Position numbers and translations under genes: made by a program. A stretch of DNA of 5,895 nt from Pseudomonadota bacterium (GTDB lineage: Bacteria; Pseudomonadota; Gammaproteobacteria; Steroidobacterales; Steroidobacteraceae): the NCBI GenBank assembly GCA_021850555.1, contig JAJZLX010000481.1, positions 1 to 5,895 on the forward strand. Reading direction: 5' to 3'. This document shows positions 1 to 5,895 of the stretch, in pieces. The notes below the pieces were generated by a model. It was not told the origin of the DNA and made no database searches. It saw nothing but the letters and a program-made list of their open reading frames with translations. Numbering within the stretch: position 1 is the first letter of the stretch; each line of letters begins with the position of its first letter.

Positions 1-638
1 CCAACCCCTTCGCACAGAATGAAGCGCTCCGACACGCGCAGCACTTCAGCGCGCTCGAGCGGGTCCTCCCCGCAAGGGATGATCGCGAAAGCACCATACG
101 GGCGCGTGCCCAGTGCAAACTTCTTCGCTCCGTCCCCGGAAATTCTCTGTAGGCCCCGCCACGTGAGCACCTCAGAGTCATCAAATCCGAGTACCGGGAC
201 CAGAAGCTCACCGCGCGTCCCCGAGACACGCAGTCCCGCGGCGCCAAGCGGCGGATCGTCCAGGTACGGATGCTCGTGAGGGTCATCGCCGCGCGCCCAG
301 GCCGCGCGCGCGGACTCGACCGCACGCCGATGCTCGGCCTCTCGTTCAGCGGCGTGCTCAGCCTGGCGGCGCCGGATCTCCTCGCGCTCAGCGGCCGAGA
401 TTGGGGGCAGCGAAGCACCCTGCTCTCGACCGCGGAAATACCGCAACTCGCCGCCGGCCTTGAAATTGCGAATCCATCCGTTGCCGTCCGGCCACAGCAA
501 ATACGAGGCATCCTCGCGGTCCCTCTCACGCTCCCCGGCATCGGCCCGATGAATCTTTCCATCCGCAAGACAGCGCATAGGATCGATCAAGACACCCTGT
601 TCTGCGGCCCACGCGATGAACTTGCGGTAGTCCACCAT
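1..638 (-). CDS. Toprim primase-like protein, N-terminal part (runs off left edge)
   Basis: The frame is open from ATG (638-636) to the left edge, giving about 212 residues with no stop; the C-terminus lies outside the window. Seen: an N-terminal region with DGKIHRAD (26-33) and DGNGWIRNFKAG (51-62), typical of plasmid and phage primase-like proteins. A charged helical stretch rich in Glu and Arg follows (about 82-115). Then come HPYLDDPPLGAAGLRVS (123-139), a LLVPVLG strand (145-151) and LQRISGDGAKKFALG (163-177). ILCEGV (207-212) is the start of a toprim fold, Glu210 being the expected catalytic acid. The later DxD motif would be beyond the edge. No CHC2 zinc finger is visible. The family is associated with plasmid and conjugative-element primases, some of which (for example RP4 TraC) are passed to the recipient. 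The start is firm: TGATG overlaps the stop of the upstream gene by one base, with GGGAGA about 9 bases before the ATG. Confidence 0.8.
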   Translation of the reverse strand, partial: MVDYRKFIAWAAEQGVLIDPMRCLADGKIHRADAGERERDREDASYLLWPDGNGWIRNFKAGGELRYFRGREQGASLPPISAAEREEIRRRQAEHAAEREAEHRRAVESARAAWARGDDPHEHPYLDDPPLGAAGLRVSGTRGELLVPVLGFDDSEVLTWRGLQRISGDGAKKFALGTRPYGAFAIIPCGEDPLERAEVLRVSERFILCEGV

Positions 639-1168
639 CAGCGACTCTCTCCCAGGCCCTCTTCCATCCCCTCATCGAGAGTGGCTTCATCGCCCGCGGC
701 GCGCGTGTCAGTCCTGCGTTCTTCCGGCACCTGTTCGACGTCGAAGTGCACACACTCCTTCTCCGTGAGTTCACGATCACAGGCAATGACGCCGTAGCGA
801 TGCCGGCTTACCGGGAGATTCGGTCGCAGATGCGCGATGTCCCGCGGTACCTCGACATAGTCCCACTTCAGCCCCGCCGGCATCGTCGCAAAGCCCGCCG
901 GGCGCAACAGCGGCCGGTACAGGTACCGCGCCGGCTCTCGCTGCGAAGGTGGCTCGTTGTTCTCAGTCCCACGCGCGAGCGGCTCAGCAGGTTCCGTGTT
1001 CAGCCCCTCGCAAAGACCGTCAATTTCCTCTGTCGTCATCGGCTCGAACTCAAACCCGTTCGTCGCAACGTGCTCAACATCCTGCGGCGGCGCTCCACCG
1101 TTCATCTCCAACTGTTGCTGATACACACGGAGCGCCGCCAGCACGGTCGCGAGCTCTCTTGCATTCAT
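638..1168 (-). CDS. Conserved mobile-element protein of unknown function, two-domain (176 aa)
   Basis: Not assignable to a characterised function. Two blocks are visible. Residues 1-57 (MNARELATVLAALRVYQQQL, then EHVATNGFEFEPMTTEEIDGLCEGLN) resemble a small helical protein I recall from proteobacterial plasmids and ICEs, usually near ardC-like genes. A Pro/Glu-rich linker spans about 58-80. Residues 81-150 (YLYRPLLRPAGFATMPAGL, KWDYVEVPRD, NLPVSRHRYGVI, ELTEKECVHFDVE) look like a second small alpha/beta domain, also seen as a short separate product in such elements. The tail (151-176) is acidic and low in complexity. Both comparisons are from memory. The start is secure: its ATG overlaps the ArdC stop as ATGA (1168-1165), with AGGAG 7 bases upstream inside the ArdC gene. 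No signal peptide or membrane segment is seen, so it is probably cytoplasmic. It is translated with ArdC and the primase-like gene. Confidence 0.82.
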   Translation of the reverse strand: MNARELATVLAALRVYQQQLEMNGGAPPQDVEHVATNGFEFEPMTTEEIDGLCEGLNTEPAEPLARGTENNEPPSQREPARYLYRPLLRPAGFATMPAGLKWDYVEVPRDIAHLRPNLPVSRHRYGVIACDRELTEKECVHFDVEQVPEERRTDTRAAGDEATLDEGMEEGLGESR

Positions 1169-3876
1169 CGTTCGACTCCTTCTTCCGGCTCGACTGCGAC
1201 GATATCCTCGGTCACGGCGCGATGTCGCTCGCCGAGGGCTCGCGAGAGCGCGGCCTCCCGCGAGGCAACCGTACCCAGCCGTTCGCGCGTCGCGGGGTCG
1301 CGCAGCGCGAGGTCCCCGTTCGCCGCGGATTCGATCCGCATCAACTCGCCATGGCGCCCGTCAACAACCCCACCACACTCCTGTAGATCGTGCTGCGCAC
1401 ACGCCGCCTCGATCACCGATGCCTGGTGCGGCGTGACGCCGGCAAGCTCGAGCGCCTGCTCGAGTTCGCGCTCCCGCGCGAGCACGTAATCCGCCGCCTC
1501 TCCGGCTTCCTTCGCGGCGCGGAAAAACTCGTTCTTGTCGGCCTTCAACACCTTGGCCCAGCTCTGAAGGTACGCCTTGTGTTGAATATCGATGTTCGAC
1601 TCCACACTCCCCGGACGCGATGCCTCGTCACGACCGGCGATGCCGGTCTCCGCCGACAGGAATGCGCTTGCGAGCTCGGCCCGCAATTCCTCGCGGGCGT
1701 AGCCTTCGGAGCCAAACCGGTGATCGCCCGTGATGCCATCACGCGCGAGCCGCTGCGCGGCACCTGTGGCATGGCCGATCTCATGCAGCGCAGTGGCGTA
1801 GTAGCGCTCCTGGGAGATGAATCGGTCACGCTCGGGCAACTGGATCGTGTCAATGATCGACACATAACACGCCGCATCGCCGCCGACCTTAAACGCGATG
1901 CCGTCGGCGCGCATGGCAGCCATGAGAAACTCACCCCGCGTGTGCGCATCGATCGCCGGGCACTGCTCCGGGAGAGACTTTAACTTCTCGGGATCAAGCC
2001 CCTCGCACTGCTCGACGTTGAAGACCGTGAACACGCGCGCAGCAGCGGTATCAAGACTCTCGTGCGCAGCACGCCAGGAGATCTGTTTACCGTTGTGCTC
2101 GACGCGCAGGGAGTTTGGATGCGCGGTCGTCGTGGTTCGTTTCGAATAGCCCGACGCGCGGATCTCGACTCCGGCTGGGCCCTCCGCAAACACCTTGACG
2201 CGCGCTCCATCCAGCGTGATCTTTACGTCCCTGCGCTCCCAAAACGGCCGCGGCTTCCACACCTCGATCGGTACACCGTGCTCGCCCTTGCGAACGTAAC
2301 CGCTGGCTTCCCCAACTTGCCTGAACGTCAGCCATCGCGGGTCCGTATATCCGCGTTCGGCGGCGACCAGCATCGTCATGAAGCGATTGATGCCTTGATA
2401 GCGATGCCCGGAGAGTCCGTTCATGGGCCGCTCGCCCTGCCTCCACGGCTTCTCCCAGGGGATTTTTCCCTCCTCGAGCGCCGCGACCATCTTGTCGGTG
2501 ATCTCCTGACGAAAATCGCGGCCGTGCTGATTCGATGAGCTTCGCGGCTCCTGCACAGGAGCGCTGCCGGGTGGCTCGGGCGGCTGGCTAAGACCCTCAT
2601 GCAACCCGGAAGAGCGCGAATCGAAGATGCGCGCCGTCTCGGCCGTGACCGCGAGCGCCGTGGCAAGCGCATCTCCGGCGCGCGAACTGGGCAAAGCGGT
2701 AAGAATCGCAACGAGAGGCCCCTGACCAGCCCCGTCCTCAACCTGGCCGGCCGGCTTCGAAACGAGTGAGGCCATACCCTCGAACCACTCGATGCGACTG
2801 CCGTCAACCGCCCCCGCATGGGGCTCGGCGTCGCCGTAGACCGCGCGGATCATGCCTCGAAACTCGGCGGACTCGGCAAGGCGCGCCGCCTGGGCAACCG
2901 ACTCCAGGTCATCCGCGCGACCAGTCAAGATGACCGCGTATGAGCCGACGAGCACCGCGGCGTGCGACACGGACTTCATGACCTCAGACGGCGAATATCG
3001 GCTGGGTGTCACCGTGGAAGCCGCGAGGCGGCCGAGCAGTTCCCGCTGTTGCGTCTCATTGGCAAGGGACTCGAAGAATGCATCCGCTTCGAGCCACGCC
3101 ATATCCCGCCCTTCGTACTGCACGCGGATCTGGCGAGATTCCACCTCGATGACGTTCGATACGCCCTCGAGCGCGATCGCGATACGGCCCGGCCCGTTGA
3201 CCTCAGAGACCCACGCCCGCCGGTCCCGGTACATGAGCATCACACCGTCGCGCTCCCAAAACGGCTTTTCCATCACTGCCGTAGGGGCACCGATGCCGCT
3301 GGCTTGGGCATATTGCCGCTCGGCCTGCTCACGATTGAGAGACATGGCCTCCGGTAGGACTTTCGCCTCGAGCGCCTCGAGGAGCGGGGGACGGAGTCCC
3401 CACTCCGACTGTGCAATGGTCACGGGCGCTTCACGCACATCGAGACTCGCGCTGCTCGAAACGCTACGCAGCGCCGAAAGCGCTGCGTGGGCCGCCGACG
3501 GTTCCCATTCGGCATGCTCGCAAGACTGGTAGTCGAGATACCGGGCCAGCTCGGCGGCGGCGGCCGGCTGGACTATGAGCCGCGGGTGCTCGCCGTGCAT
3601 CGCATCCAAAAACTCCCGCGCGGCATCGTGCGCAAGCGCGATGACGTCCTTATCGAGAAGATTCGGGCCGGCGCGACCAATTCCCTCCGGCGTGCCGGGA
3701 ACGTATCCGTGGGGGCGGTCGGCACGAACGCTCGCAATGTTCTCGCGCGCCAAGCTCCTGGCGACCTGAAAGACATTGAGCTCGCGCACCCCAGGCGGCT
3801 GATTCGCCTCCGGAAGCCGTTTCACGAGAGCGGCCAGAAGGCCAATTTCATAGGGGTCTGCAACGAATGCGCTCAT
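1165..3876 (-). CDS. ardC-like: ArdC-like antirestriction / zinc-metallopeptidase polyvalent protein (903 aa)
   Basis: ArdC proteins bind single-stranded DNA and protect incoming conjugative DNA from host restriction; pSa ArdC is reported to travel to the recipient. Seen: residues 453-545 form the N-terminal ArdC domain (RDFRQEITDKMVAALEEG, IPWEKPWRQGERPMNG, YQGINRFM, WLTFRQVGEASGYVRKGEHG). Residues 614-625 (RVFTVFNVEQCE) and about 640-805 form the metallopeptidase half. This includes ALHEIGHATGAAQRL with zinc motif HEIGH (698-702), a likely third ligand in REELRAELASAFLSAETGI (Glu730 or Glu734), and the closing HKAYLQSWAKVLKADKNEFF. Ordinary ArdC proteins are roughly 300 residues. Here there is also a 450-residue N-terminal extension of unknown fold, a 98-residue C-terminal extension, and about 65 residues inserted between the two core domains. 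The PFWER module occurs twice (205-261 and 544-601). The start ATG has GGGAGA 5 bases upstream. It is first in the coupled operon. The architecture fits the large polyvalent proteins of phages and conjugative elements. Confidence 0.88.
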   Translation of the reverse strand: MSAFVADPYEIGLLAALVKRLPEANQPPGVRELNVFQVARSLARENIASVRADRPHGYVPGTPEGIGRAGPNLLDKDVIALAHDAAREFLDAMHGEHPRLIVQPAAAAELARYLDYQSCEHAEWEPSAAHAALSALRSVSSSASLDVREAPVTIAQSEWGLRPPLLEALEAKVLPEAMSLNREQAERQYAQASGIGAPTAVMEKPFWERDGVMLMYRDRRAWVSEVNGPGRIAIALEGVSNVIEVESRQIRVQYEGRDMAWLEADAFFESLANETQQRELLGRLAASTVTPSRYSPSEVMKSVSHAAVLVGSYAVILTGRADDLESVAQAARLAESAEFRGMIRAVYGDAEPHAGAVDGSRIEWFEGMASLVSKPAGQVEDGAGQGPLVAILTALPSSRAGDALATALAVTAETARIFDSRSSGLHEGLSQPPEPPGSAPVQEPRSSSNQHGRDFRQEITDKMVAALEEGKIPWEKPWRQGERPMNGLSGHRYQGINRFMTMLVAAERGYTDPRWLTFRQVGEASGYVRKGEHGVPIEVWKPRPFWERRDVKITLDGARVKVFAEGPAGVEIRASGYSKRTTTTAHPNSLRVEHNGKQISWRAAHESLDTAAARVFTVFNVEQCEGLDPEKLKSLPEQCPAIDAHTRGEFLMAAMRADGIAFKVGGDAACYVSIIDTIQLPERDRFISQERYYATALHEIGHATGAAQRLARDGITGDHRFGSEGYAREELRAELASAFLSAETGIAGRDEASRPGSVESNIDIQHKAYLQSWAKVLKADKNEFFRAAKEAGEAADYVLARERELEQALELAGVTPHQASVIEAACAQHDLQECGGVVDGRHGELMRIESAANGDLALRDPATRERLGTVASREAALSRALGERHRAVTEDIVAVEPEEGVER
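2074..2247 (-). other. FWER module, copy 2 (inserted between the two ArdC core domains)
   Basis: This segment encodes residues 544-601 of the ArdC-like protein: PFWER, 41 residues (VKITL, ARVKVFAEG and GVEIRASGY blocks), then LRVEHNGKQISW. It sits between the ArdC DNA-binding domain and the VFNVEQ strand that opens the peptidase half, where ordinary ArdC proteins have a short linker. At DNA level it shares a 16-base identical run with copy 1 (2233-2248 and 3250-3265), encoding PFWER. Confidence 0.6.
3094..3264 (-). other. FWER module, copy 1 (in N-terminal extension of the ArdC-like protein)
   Basis: This segment encodes residues 205-261 of the ArdC-like protein: PFWER, 40 residues with beta-like alternation (including VMLMY and RIAIALEG), then IRVQYEGRDMAW. 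A helical stretch LEADAFFESLANETQQREL follows. It matches copy 2 in motif order and almost exactly in spacing. The preceding residues ASG...GAP (192-198) also resemble ASG...GVP (524-536) before copy 2. Its role is unknown; a small beta-rich binding domain is the simplest guess. Confidence 0.6.
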
Positions 3877-4207
3877 ACGGGTCTCCCGGCACAGAAAAGA
3901 ACGGGTGCCTCACCCTTCTCCTCCGCTGCCCGGGCCCCTTGCCGGGGCGCAATCCACTGATGGGCACAGCCCCTACTGCGGCTCCGTCAAAGCCGTATTC
4001 CGGATTGCCGGATCGAGTTCATGCCCGTGGCAAATGCCAACGTCACGCGCTCCGCGCCGTCTGGCTGTTCTCCAATGCGGCCTCGGCCACCGCGATGTAT
4101 GGCATGACTTCCCTTTGTTCGGTGAATCGGGTACTATTTCCCCGCCGAGGTATATGGGCGAGGACACTGCGCCGCAGCGAGATAGGACTCAAAACGGTGG
4201 CACACTC

Positions 4208-4252
4208 ATGGCAAAAGACTTGGCCGACCGAACTGTGAAGTCGCAAAACTAG
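4208..4252 (+). CDS. Possible 14-codon leader peptide
   Basis: ATG at 4208 reads MAKDLADRTVKSQN and stops with TAG. GGTGG (4196-4200) lies 7 bases upstream, a fair ribosome-binding site. Codons 5-8 contain TTGGCCGACCG (4220-4230), the same 11 bases found just before the RBS of the first MTAIQDT gene (4413-4423), with TGGCCGACCG at 5074-5083 in the second leader. It may be a leader peptide, or the motif may be a binding site that happens to be open. The same frame extends upstream to 3905, but that extension has no coding character that I recognise. Confidence 0.2.
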   Translation: MAKDLADRTVKSQN

Positions 4253-4354
4253 ACGAGTTCATGGAAGTTCCTATGCCCCCGGTCCGTTAAATCGGACATT
4301 TCTCATCCGTTCGCGGGGTCCCGCACGGTGAGCCCACGGATGGGAACGCCCTTG

Positions 4355-4440
4355 GCCCGGGCAGTCACCAAACACCCCTGTTTGGTCGGCCGGGCTACGT
4401 TCGACGCAGTTTTTGGCCGACCGTTTGGATATTCGGAGGC
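4355..4440 (+). promoter_or_regulatory. Structured 5' leader / operator, copy 1, with RBS
   Basis: Seen: a perfect inverted repeat ACCAAACA-CCCC-TGTTTGGT (4367-4386), flanked by GCCCGG (4355-4360) and CCGGGC (4390-4395), which can extend the hairpin. GGTCGGCC (4384-4391) can pair with GGCCGACC (4415-4422), and a second GTTTGG (4423-4428) competes for CCAAAC. The RBS GGAGG is at 4435-4439, 7 bases before the ATG. Pairing of the 8-bp stem and of GGTCGGCC/GGCCGACC is mutually exclusive where they overlap, as in attenuators. A protein operator is an equally valid reading. The whole element recurs at 5015-5099. Confidence 0.6.
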
Positions 4441-4446
4441 TTTTTC

Positions 4447-4713
4447 ATGACTGCGATTCAGGACACCTACCCGGCACAGGCGAACTCGCCCCTCAAATCC
4501 CGTGCGCGAGACCTCACGAGCCAGAGCGCTCCATGGCTCGAGGCGCTTGATCACCTCGATACCGTCGAATCACTCCTCTTGACGGTGCTCCGGCGCATGG
4601 AGACGGAAGAAGATTGGGGACCCGAACAAACAACCCTGATGGTCGGCCTCGAGTATCTCAAACGCGCCGAGGCCCGCATCCGTGCGATCCGAGATGTCCC
4701 TGGCTCTGGGTGA
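4447..4713 (+). CDS. Small helical protein of unknown function, MTAIQDT paralog 1 (88 aa)
   Basis: Function not recognised. Residues 1-7 (MTAIQDT) are identical to paralog 2, residues 8-29 are variable and probably disordered, and residues 30-79 are well conserved. The conserved part reads WLEALDHLDT, then ESLLLTVLRRM, EEDWGPEQTTL and GLEYLKRAEARIR. It looks like two amphipathic helices joined by an acidic EEDWGPEQ turn. No signal peptide, membrane segment, metal motif or obvious helix-turn-helix is visible. Topology loosely recalls small Pseudomonas families such as DUF3077 or DUF6124, but I cannot support that assignment. The start is fixed by GGAGG 7 bases upstream and by exact agreement with paralog 2. 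It is transcribed away from the ArdC-like operon, behind a structured leader. A small regulator or accessory protein of the element is possible. Confidence 0.75.
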   Translation: MTAIQDTYPAQANSPLKSRARDLTSQSAPWLEALDHLDTVESLLLTVLRRMETEEDWGPEQTTLMVGLEYLKRAEARIRAIRDVPGSG

Positions 4714-4785
4714 ATGAGTCCATGTTAAGTAAAACAATGCCCGCATCATCGAATCAAACCGGCCACGCGGATGAGCGCATCGTGT

Positions 4786-4814
4786 TTGCAAGGCACACCA
4801 TACAGGCGCACAAT
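4786..4814 (+). promoter_or_regulatory. Candidate sigma-70 promoter for paralog 2
   Basis: TTGCAA (4786-4791) and CACAAT (4809-4814) are separated by 17 bases; each matches 4 of 6 consensus positions. It would give paralog 2 its own transcript with a leader of roughly 280 bases. This is a weak match found by eye. Confidence 0.22.
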
Positions 4815-5014
4815 TCGTCCGTTGGAGAGTATCGAGTGAGGAAACTGCCCTGCGAGGGAGGCGGAGCGCCACGATCGCAGAGCACGCTCGAGGTGAGGGA
4901 CTCCAACCGACCAATAGCAAGTCGCTAAAAGGCGAGATCAAGGATGAGTGCGTCCACGTAAATGGATGCGTGCTGCTTGCCCGTCACTCGGTTAGTCGGG
5001 CACCTTGCCCAATA

Positions 5015-5099
5015 AGCCGGGCAGTCACCAAACACCATTGTTTGGTCGGCCCGGCTACGTTCATCGCAGTTTCTGGCCGACCGTTTGGATATTCGGAGG
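5015..5099 (+). promoter_or_regulatory. Structured 5' leader / operator, copy 2, with RBS
   Basis: This is a near copy of the 4355-4440 element, roughly 90% identical by eye. The hairpin is stronger here: AGCCGGGC (5015-5022), AGTC, ACCAAACA (5027-5034), loop CCAT, TGTTTGGT (5039-5046), CG, GCCCGGCT (5049-5056). Both stems pair perfectly. The loop differs from copy 1 (CCAT against CCCC) while the inner stem is unchanged. GGTCGGCC (5044-5051) and GGCCGACC (5075-5082) are also kept. GGAGG at 5095-5099 lies 6 bases before the ATG at 5106. Confidence 0.6.
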
Positions 5100-5105
5100 C
5101 TTCTC

Positions 5106-5375
5106 ATGACTGCGATTCAGGACACCGCCCCAGCCCGCGCTCGCGCAGCCCGCAAACTCCCTACGGGCAATTCCGCGCACGACACCGAAACCTGGCTCGA
5201 GTCACTCGACCATCTCGACACCGCAGAATCGATCGTTCTCACGGTGCTCCGGCGGATGGGCTCGGAGGAAGATTGGGGACCGGAACAGACGACGCTTCTC
5301 GCCGGCCTCGAGTACCTCAAACGTGTAGCGCAGCGGATCCGGCGCCACGTCGACCAGCCTTCACGTCGCAAATAG
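5106..5375 (+). CDS. Small helical protein of unknown function, MTAIQDT paralog 2 (89 aa)
   Basis: This is the paralog of the gene at 4447. MTAIQDT is identical, and about 39 of 50 residues are identical over positions 30-79, including LDHLDT, LTVLRRM, EEDWGPEQTTL and GLEYLKR. Residues 8-29 differ almost completely and are rich in Ala and Arg; the tail HVDQPSRRK is more basic than in paralog 1. The frame stays open upstream to a TTG at 5085, but ATG 5106 is the right start: it follows GGAGG by 6 bases and matches the paralog exactly. The function is unknown. A perfect hairpin follows 9 bases after the TAG. Keeping two copies, each with its own leader, suggests both are expressed and may form homo- or hetero-oligomers; that is inference. 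Confidence 0.75.
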   Translation: MTAIQDTAPARARAARKLPTGNSAHDTETWLESLDHLDTAESIVLTVLRRMGSEEDWGPEQTTLLAGLEYLKRVAQRIRRHVDQPSRRK

Positions 5376-5384
5376 GCCGTGCTC

Positions 5385-5414
5385 CAGCCTGGCGGGCGCA
5401 AGCCCGCCAGGCTG
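5385..5414. terminator. Perfect 13-bp hairpin between convergent genes, possible bidirectional terminator
   Basis: CAGCCTGGCGGGC (5385-5397), loop GCAA (GNRA type on the plus strand), GCCCGCCAGGCTG (5402-5414), with no mismatch. It lies between the TAG of paralog 2 (5375) and the stop of the convergent 117-residue gene (5423). The position suits a shared terminator. There is no T-run after the stem on either strand, so classic intrinsic termination is not assured. It could instead be a 3'-end stabiliser or a REP-like element. Confidence 0.5.
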
Positions 5415-5422
5415 CATCGCCC

Positions 5423-5776
5423 CTACCGGCCCAGGTCCGCGCTGTCCTCGACCCCGACATCACGATCACGATCTTCGATCCGCGCAAAGAGTTCCTTGCC
5501 CTCCGCGTGACTCAAGCCGCCCAACCGTTCACAGGCGAGGAGCCAGGACATTCGCTCCGGCACACCGCCCTCTTTCTCGACCAGGACCGAAAGCGAGATC
5601 GGATTAACCGCTTTCGGACGGGCTCCCCCCTCGAGCGGTTCAACCATCACCCGAGTGCCATCCTCGATGACGTCGACGACGTTCACTGGCACTTCTTCGG
5701 CGCGCTCGGTCTCCCCGCGCGACTCCAGAAGTAAAACCCTGACCTCCTCGCGAGCCCAAAATCTCTCAATGCTCAT
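5423..5776 (-). CDS. FWER-module protein coupled to the putative coupling-protein gene (117 aa)
   Basis: Function not recognised. Residues 6-78 repeat the module found twice in the ArdC-like protein: RFWAREEV at the start, alternating beta-like strands (VRVLLLES, VPVNVVDVIEDG, TRVMVEPLEGG), then ISLSVLVEKEGG and MSW (76-78). The following helix LLACERLGGLSHAEGKELF (79-97) parallels LEADAFFESLANETQQREL after copy 1 in ArdC. The spacing from FW to the closing W is about 16 residues longer than in ArdC. The C-terminus (98-117) is charged and mostly acidic. No signal peptide or membrane segment is seen. The start is fixed by an ATGA overlap with the upstream gene (5776-5773) and GGGAAGGA ending 4 bases upstream. 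Coupling to a putative conjugation gene suggests an accessory role in transfer or establishment, but this is inference. Confidence 0.78.
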   Translation of the reverse strand: MSIERFWAREEVRVLLLESRGETERAEEVPVNVVDVIEDGTRVMVEPLEGGARPKAVNPISLSVLVEKEGGVPERMSWLLACERLGGLSHAEGKELFARIEDRDRDVGVEDSADLGR

Positions 5777-5895
5777 GACATCCTTCCCGTAGTTGCACTG
5801 GTACCATAATTTACGGCGGCGACCATGGTGGGGTCCTTGTAATACTTCACCTTTTCGCAGCGAATGGGTGCCGTAAAGGGGAAAAACACCACCGC
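5773..5895 (-). CDS. Putative type IV coupling protein (VirD4/TraG-like), last 40 codons
   Basis: The minus-strand frame is open from the right edge to TGA (5775-5773). It encodes 40 residues, which include VVFFPFTAPIRCEKVKYYKD and then PTMVAAVNYGTS. The pattern hydrophobic strand, PIR-x-x-K-x-x-YY-x-D-P resembles the segment near the end of VirD4/TraG-type coupling proteins, where a strand leads into PIRAKKIRYYxD-like residues. These are inner-membrane ATPases that link the relaxosome to the type IV secretion channel. Only the C-terminus is present, so the Walker motifs and membrane segments cannot be checked. Support for a real gene comes from the ATGA overlap with the downstream 117-residue gene, which carries its own RBS inside this frame. 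The product name rests on a short motif. Confidence 0.55.
   Translation of the reverse strand, partial: AVVFFPFTAPIRCEKVKYYKDPTMVAAVNYGTSATTGRMS

What the first reader, a model, noticed from the sequence alone, without database searches (positions are those of the whole stretch)
2074..5761. One undescribed FWER module in three copies across two proteins
Seen: PFWER-x40-IRVQYEGRDMAW (ArdC-like residues 205-261), PFWER-x41-LRVEHNGKQISW (544-601), and RFWAR ... SLSVLVEKEGG ... MSW (residues 5-78 of the 117-residue protein). Motif order is the same in all three, spacing differs by one residue between the two ArdC copies, and two of the three are followed by a similar helix. I know of no named domain with this pattern. 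A free-standing copy plus one lodged inside an antirestriction protein suggests a portable binding module.
Basis: partly seen in the sequence, partly recalled or inferred. Interest (0 to 1): 0.75.

Follow-up and report, generated by a model that had tools for sequence, protein, structure and literature searches.

The report
Small barrel module in antirestriction proteins
A mobile element carries an unnamed protein module, probably a small SH3-like barrel, twice inside an antirestriction protein and once as its own small protein encoded next to the DNA-export motor, and both proteins end in a tail shared by many likely exported proteins of the element.

Summary

The 117-aa start codon overlaps the stop of a VirD4-like gene; both proteins end in acidic residues plus Arg. 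The strict form, met by the ArdC-like protein, is on 11 of 52 ORFs here and 0 of 376 control ORFs; the 117-aa tail meets a looser rule (17 of 250 against 4 of 2020). I read the module as a partner-binding barrel on exported proteins; binding and export are inferred.

The parts
1165..3876 (-). 903-aa ArdC-like protein: N-terminal helical domain, FWER copy 1, an unnamed middle region, ArdC-N with FWER copy 2 inserted, zincin-like metallopeptidase, C-terminal tail
3073..3264 (-). FWER copy 1 (residues 205-268)
   Evidence: homologous to copy 2; fold not resolved (pLDDT under 50)
2053..2247 (-). FWER copy 2 (residues 544-608), inserted between the two strands of the ArdC-N beta3-beta4 hairpin
   Evidence: lies in the gap between 6SNA residues 94 and 117; strands 535-543 and 610-620 flank it; pLDDT 82-90 by blocks of ten, one block (571-580) at 67; Spt5 barrel matches at 543-611
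2017..2517 (-). ArdC-N ssDNA-binding domain (residues 454-620) that hosts copy 2
1510..1917 (-). Zincin-like metallopeptidase (residues 654-789) with HEIGH at 698-702 and EELRAE at 729
3244..3876 (-). N-terminal helical domain (residues 1-211), shared with a 665-aa protein elsewhere on the element
   Evidence: 35% identity over 226 columns, E 1e-21; helices from a low-confidence model
1168..1197 (-). C-terminal tail of the ArdC-like protein (AVEPEEGVER)
5423..5776 (-). 117-aa free-standing FWER protein
5519..5770 (-). Barrel of the 117-aa protein (residues 3-86)
   Evidence: AlphaFold model, mean pLDDT 79.5; SH3-like barrel matches within residues 2-86
5426..5455 (-). C-terminal tail of the 117-aa protein (GVEDSADLGR)
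5773..5895 (-). 3' end of a VirD4/TraG-like coupling-protein gene whose stop overlaps the 117-aa start codon (ATGA)
   Evidence: Pfam T4SS-DNA_transf 1.2e-59 on L004:16718-17998; overlap read from the window
638..1168 (-). 176-aa protein with a weak DarA C-terminal-like region (below Pfam's cut-off), start overlapping the ArdC-like stop
3..638 (-). Start of a 361-aa primase-like protein (Toprim_3 further on)
   Evidence: PHROG DNA primase 4.8e-15; Toprim_3 on the full gene

Best explanation
The FWER segment is a small SH3-like beta-barrel (N-terminal FW helix, six strands, one helix) without a family name, used as a docking module on proteins that an integrative conjugative element sends with its DNA. 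In the ArdC-like protein, copy 2 is grafted into the beta3-beta4 hairpin of the ssDNA-binding ArdC-N domain and so sits where that domain probes DNA; it is neutral to positively charged and may widen the DNA-contact surface. Copy 1 and the free protein are negatively charged and more likely bind a protein. The 117-aa gene overlaps the VirD4-like coupling-protein gene, and both FWER proteins end in an acidic Arg-terminated tail of a kind also on relaxase, SSB and primase, so both are probably delivered to the recipient by the type IV secretion system. Shown by computation: homology of copies 1 and 2, insertion site, gene overlap, shared tail. Supported by prediction: common fold of copy 2 and the free protein. 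Inferred: ligands, export and role.
Confidence: 0.55

Rival explanations
1. Copies 1 and 2 are an internal duplication of ArdC, and the 117-aa protein is an unrelated small barrel that resembles them by convergence: FW at the start and SW near the end are ordinary core residues of such barrels.
Against: Profile-profile score far above shuffled columns; the same F-W-x-x-x-x-V start, order of elements and SW-x-x-A end; location near an ArdC-like gene in two further genomes, G019 and G013.
Confidence: 0.2
2. The module is structural padding: in ArdC it stabilises the hairpin or spaces domains, and the free copy is a leftover fragment.
For: Most ArdC relatives lack copy 2; copy 1 can be absent; no free gene was found on contig C55; the free gene of G013 has a stop before its end.
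Against: The free family has ten members besides the window's, 35-98% identical to it, and the window's gene starts on the coupling-protein stop codon; copy 1 is 81-93% identical in the six relatives aligned.
Confidence: 0.15
3. The free protein is an adaptor that stays in the donor and hands tail-bearing cargo to the coupling protein, rather than being cargo.
For: ATGA overlap with the coupling-protein gene; in G013 it also follows such a gene, by 25 bases, and there its tail is missing; small acidic proteins are known as secretion adaptors (recalled).
Against: In the window it bears a tail like that of the cargo-like proteins; in G019 it follows another gene, which resembles the 182-aa LPD7 protein at its start.
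Confidence: 0.3

Closest known systems
ArdC of IncW plasmid R388 (PDB 6SNA, 6I89)
   Different: R388 ArdC has a plain beta3-beta4 hairpin and no domain before ArdC-N; here copy 2 is inserted in the hairpin and about 450 residues precede it
Spt5 (KOW) and Tudor/chromo-barrel domains
   Same: Closest solved folds for the free protein and for copy 2
   Different: No KOW or Tudor family among the Pfam matches; 7-19% identity in the 50 rows; whether they have a counterpart of the FW helix was not checked
Polyvalent proteins of phages and conjugative elements (PMC5512222, passages)
   Same: ArdC-N with metallopeptidase and extra domains in one chain, carried by conjugative elements
   Different: No SH3-like insert is named: 0 occurrences of SH3 in the main text
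Legionella E-block and Agrobacterium VirF-type C-terminal secretion signals
   Same: Short C-terminal signals, Glu-rich in the first and with an Arg motif in the second (PMC10025392, passages)
   Different: Here an acidic block followed by a terminal x-G-R or x-E-R on a conjugative element; export untested

Membership tests
ArdC antirestriction proteins | ArdC-N domain | tested here: met
   Pfam ArdcN 7.8e-29
ArdC antirestriction proteins | Zincin metallopeptidase with HExxH and glutamate helix | tested here: met
   MPTase-PolyVal 2.2e-34; HEIGH 698, EELRAE 729
ArdC antirestriction proteins | ssDNA binding and protection from restriction | not testable with these tools
   needs biochemistry
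KOW / Spt5 family | Sequence profile match | tested here: not met
   no KOW family among Pfam matches up to E 1 for 11 module segments and 13 free-protein rows
SH3-like small beta-barrels | Barrel fold of copy 2 and of the free protein | tested here: inconclusive
SH3-like small beta-barrels | Barrel fold of copy 1 | tested here: inconclusive
   pLDDT under 50
Type IV secretion substrates | Transport that depends on the coupling protein | not testable with these tools
   only the shared tail was seen
Legionella E-block | Glu-rich C-terminal motif | tested here: inconclusive
   16 tails: acidic at -4 in 14, at -6 in 12, at -7 in 13; the tails were chosen for being acidic and ending in R

The most novel reading that the evidence does not exclude
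The element uses an address code: an acidic block followed by x-G-R (in sister elements mostly x-E-R) at the extreme C terminus marks its exported proteins (relaxase, SSB, primase, ArdC, LPD7, Fic and the FWER protein) but not its export machinery, and the preferred ending differs from element to element as if it followed the receptor. The FWER barrel is the matching docking part, free next to the coupling protein and built into ArdC, that gathers this cargo on the transferred strand.
Probability: 0.2. Interest if true: 0.8.

Novelty: new variant of a known kind. Interest (0 to 1): 0.5.

Why it matters
ArdC-N binds single-stranded DNA and has a protruding hairpin (PMC7213743); a natural graft in that hairpin gives a direct way to ask what the hairpin does. 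A free copy overlapping the export-motor gene, and a tail shared by likely cargo, would let exported proteins of integrative elements be listed from sequence, which is rarely possible because type IV signals vary widely (PMC10025392, passages).

Tried and rejected
Shine-Dalgarno or overlapping-start artefact as the cause of the tails: rejected, because the same residues use different codons (Arg CGA, CGT, CGC, CGG; Gly GGC, GGG, GGT, GGA), all three stops occur, and several tails are not followed at once by a start codon (16 tails of C50, 2 of Ferrovum, 4 of G019). Sequence-profile search as the link between the third copy and ArdC: failed. Distribution: one viral-contig scan gave 67 loci with ArdC relatives, none with the module; two further viral scans gave no related locus; a plasmid and a phage search with the Ferrovum-type copy 2 gave no match; the free protein gave one chance-level plasmid match (E 0.7). 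Of 2882 plasmid records that match the ArdC-like protein only 30 were listed, and I did not read them for the insert. In the order of the distant G970 locus, 78 genomes gave only itself at E 1e-60. Whether G013 and G019 were in the draws is not shown, so those negatives are soft. Solved structures by sequence: best E 0.036 for the mixed module profile over 27 positions (PNPase) and 0.75 for the free family, taken as chance. Relaxases of two Burkholderiales plasmids end RDTGRDDR and DRGGKGR, not clearly the same signal; the small proteins encoded before them end SGDDR and SGEER (7 proteins looked at). Papers: the search (antirestriction, SH3, conjugative, domain of unknown function) found 0; the listings showed no such tail in titles or abstract starts, and the passages seen of PMC11288057 and PMC10025392 describe other signals. 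A fold family that is not listed is not excluded.
Full report
What is there. On its minus strand lie, in transcription order, the end of a VirD4/TraG-like coupling-protein gene, a 117-aa gene, a 903-aa ArdC-like gene, a 176-aa gene and the start of a primase-like gene. The rest of the contig carries a MobA/VirD2-type relaxase with LPD7, an SSB, a second coupling protein, a secretion ATPase and a topoisomerase: an integrative conjugative element by content; its ends were not mapped.

The observation. Copy 1 and copy 2 are homologous: score 73 against at most 51 in 2000 shuffles, and hhalign 40.4 against at most 18.5 in 200 column shuffles. The third segment is harder. Pairwise it is not convincing (12.5% and 3.4% of shuffles reach the score). 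With 11 free sequences and 17 copy-2 sequences (the window's own included in each), hhalign gives 42.1 over 68 columns against at most 20.7 in 200 shuffles; against 16 copy-1 sequences it gives 19.3, reached by 3 of 200. Ordinary profile searches in 5605 frames (522 kb) let the copy-2 profile find copy 1 (E 0.0065) and the copy-1 profile find copy 2 (E 0.017) as best non-self stretches, but do not reach the free protein: E 3.5 with the copy-2 profile, behind two control frames, and in reverse E 4.4 on the FW start only.

Fold. The free protein, predicted from 13 rows of the free family only, is a six-stranded barrel between an N-terminal FW helix and a C-terminal helix, mean pLDDT 79.5. Copy 2, predicted inside the ArdC-like protein from an alignment without any free relative, shows the same elements in the same order at pLDDT 82-90 by blocks of ten, one block at 67. 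Foldseek found no significant match for the free protein (best E 0.031, archaeal RNase P protein), but the aligned top rows are mostly SH3-like barrels: Spt5, Tudor, chromo, PWWP and myosin N-terminal ones (the label SH3-like for some is recalled). Chains 8qsz_Y, 8jch_W, 8ram_Z and 7nky_Z, Spt5 in polymerase complexes, are matched by both the free protein and copy 2 over nearly the same residues of each chain; that this is the KOW5 barrel is inferred from row 5xog. I could not superpose the two models directly. Copy 1 fell in a region with pLDDT under 50.

Where copy 2 sits. R388 ArdC aligns up to its residue 94 and again from 117; in that structure beta3 and beta4 form a long protruding hairpin before V121FNADQ126 (PMC7213743, section 8 part 1 read). 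In the model, strands 535-543 and 610-620 flank the barrel. Of 66 genome loci with an ArdC relative, 42 showed both flanking motifs: 40 have 29-49 residues between them and 2 have 82-83, both with the module; of 67 viral loci, 32 showed both motifs, with 26-39 residues and no module. A further divergent case, FFERKDV, lies in a genome of the same phylum but another class (G970, L086).

Distribution. Five, then ten free proteins among 5.77 billion (the ten include the five; only the 7985 best candidates were scored), 15 ArdC-like proteins with copy 1. In whole genomes: the free protein in 3 of 99, own genome included; the module in 1 of 396 in the order and 1 of 369 in the class, both times the own genome, with at most 15-16 candidates scored per genome. 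The own genome has a fourth copy on contig C55, inside an ArdC-like orthologue that lacks copy 1. As far as these searches see, the module is rare.

Context of the free gene. Its ATG overlaps the coupling-protein stop as ATGA (window 5773-5776). In G013 it follows a coupling-protein gene after 25 bases, but its frame stops before the tail; in G019 it follows a gene that resembles the 182-aa LPD7 protein at its start, and precedes the ArdC-like gene.

Tails. Both FWER proteins end in acidic residues and a final Arg. In a greedy ORF map (at least 100 aa, spurious ORFs included), 11 of 52 ORFs on this contig end in R with at least four acidic residues in the last ten, against 0 of 376 in 470 kb of other contigs of the same genome (p 3e-11). 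The ArdC-like protein is one of the 11; the 117-aa protein is not, it meets only a looser rule (R, three acidic in the last eight) that 17 of 250 ORFs of at least 80 aa meet here against 4 of 2020 in the control. The control was not cleaned of mobile DNA: it includes contig C16, with a related relaxase ending GRDEGR that neither rule counts. I noticed the tails first and made the rules afterwards. Under the strict rule the bearers include relaxase, SSB, primase and a Fic protein, under the looser one also the LPD7 and DarA-like proteins. The two coupling proteins, the secretion ATPase, the topoisomerase and a DNA methylase have no such tail. On C55 and G013:C178 an E-R ending is enriched: 8 of 45 and 10 of 59 against 1 of 376; G-R endings are 2 of 45 and 6 of 59 there, 10 of 52 on C50, 6 of 376 in the control. 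Against a simple code: the ArdC-like protein ends VER on C50 but IGR in G013, and the G013 relaxase ends MNRED. All 13 ArdC-like sequences and the window with an intact end finish in G-V/I/L-E-R (3 are fragments); all 11 free sequences end in R; Ferrovum's ArdC ends AEVSR, its relaxase KDADLGR, and the G970 protein LELSH. Codon usage shows that the signal is in the protein, not the DNA. By analogy with known C-terminal signals (PMC10025392, passages) I read it as an export signal; nothing here tests export.

How it may work. The free protein and copy 1 are acidic, copy 2 is neutral to basic. My reading: copy 2 extends the DNA-facing hairpin, while copy 1 and the free protein bind a protein of the transfer apparatus. 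Estimates: three copies homologous 0.8; barrel for copy 2 and the free protein 0.85, for copy 1 0.7; exported 0.5; a common protein partner 0.35.

Noticed in passing
window 1168-1197 and 5426-5455 (minus); G000:C50 whole contig; L069:2392-2428: An acidic, Arg-ending C-terminal tail (often E-E-x-D-L-G-R) recurs on many otherwise different proteins of the element; sister elements favour x-E-R; the Ferrovum relaxase ends DADLGR.
   Followed up: partly
window 4447-4713 and 5085-5375, plus strand: Two similar small proteins (88 and 96 aa) in tandem on the opposite strand, between the 117-aa and ArdC-like genes, with similar reading frames before each; G019 has one such protein.
   Followed up: no
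window 3244-3876 (minus); L004:5795-7792 (minus): The N-terminal 211 residues of the ArdC-like protein recur at the start of a 665-aa protein, 35% identical: another movable domain.
   Followed up: partly
L006:8854-10080 (minus): A Fic-domain protein of the element ends in DAQDLDPGR, so it may be sent to recipients.
   Followed up: no
G000:C16, C55, C70: Three more contigs of the genome hold relaxase or ArdC-like genes related to this element.
   Followed up: partly
window 638 and 1165-1168 (minus): The ArdC-like, 176-aa and primase-like genes overlap at their ends (4 bases and 1 base), so the set may be translationally coupled.
   Followed up: no
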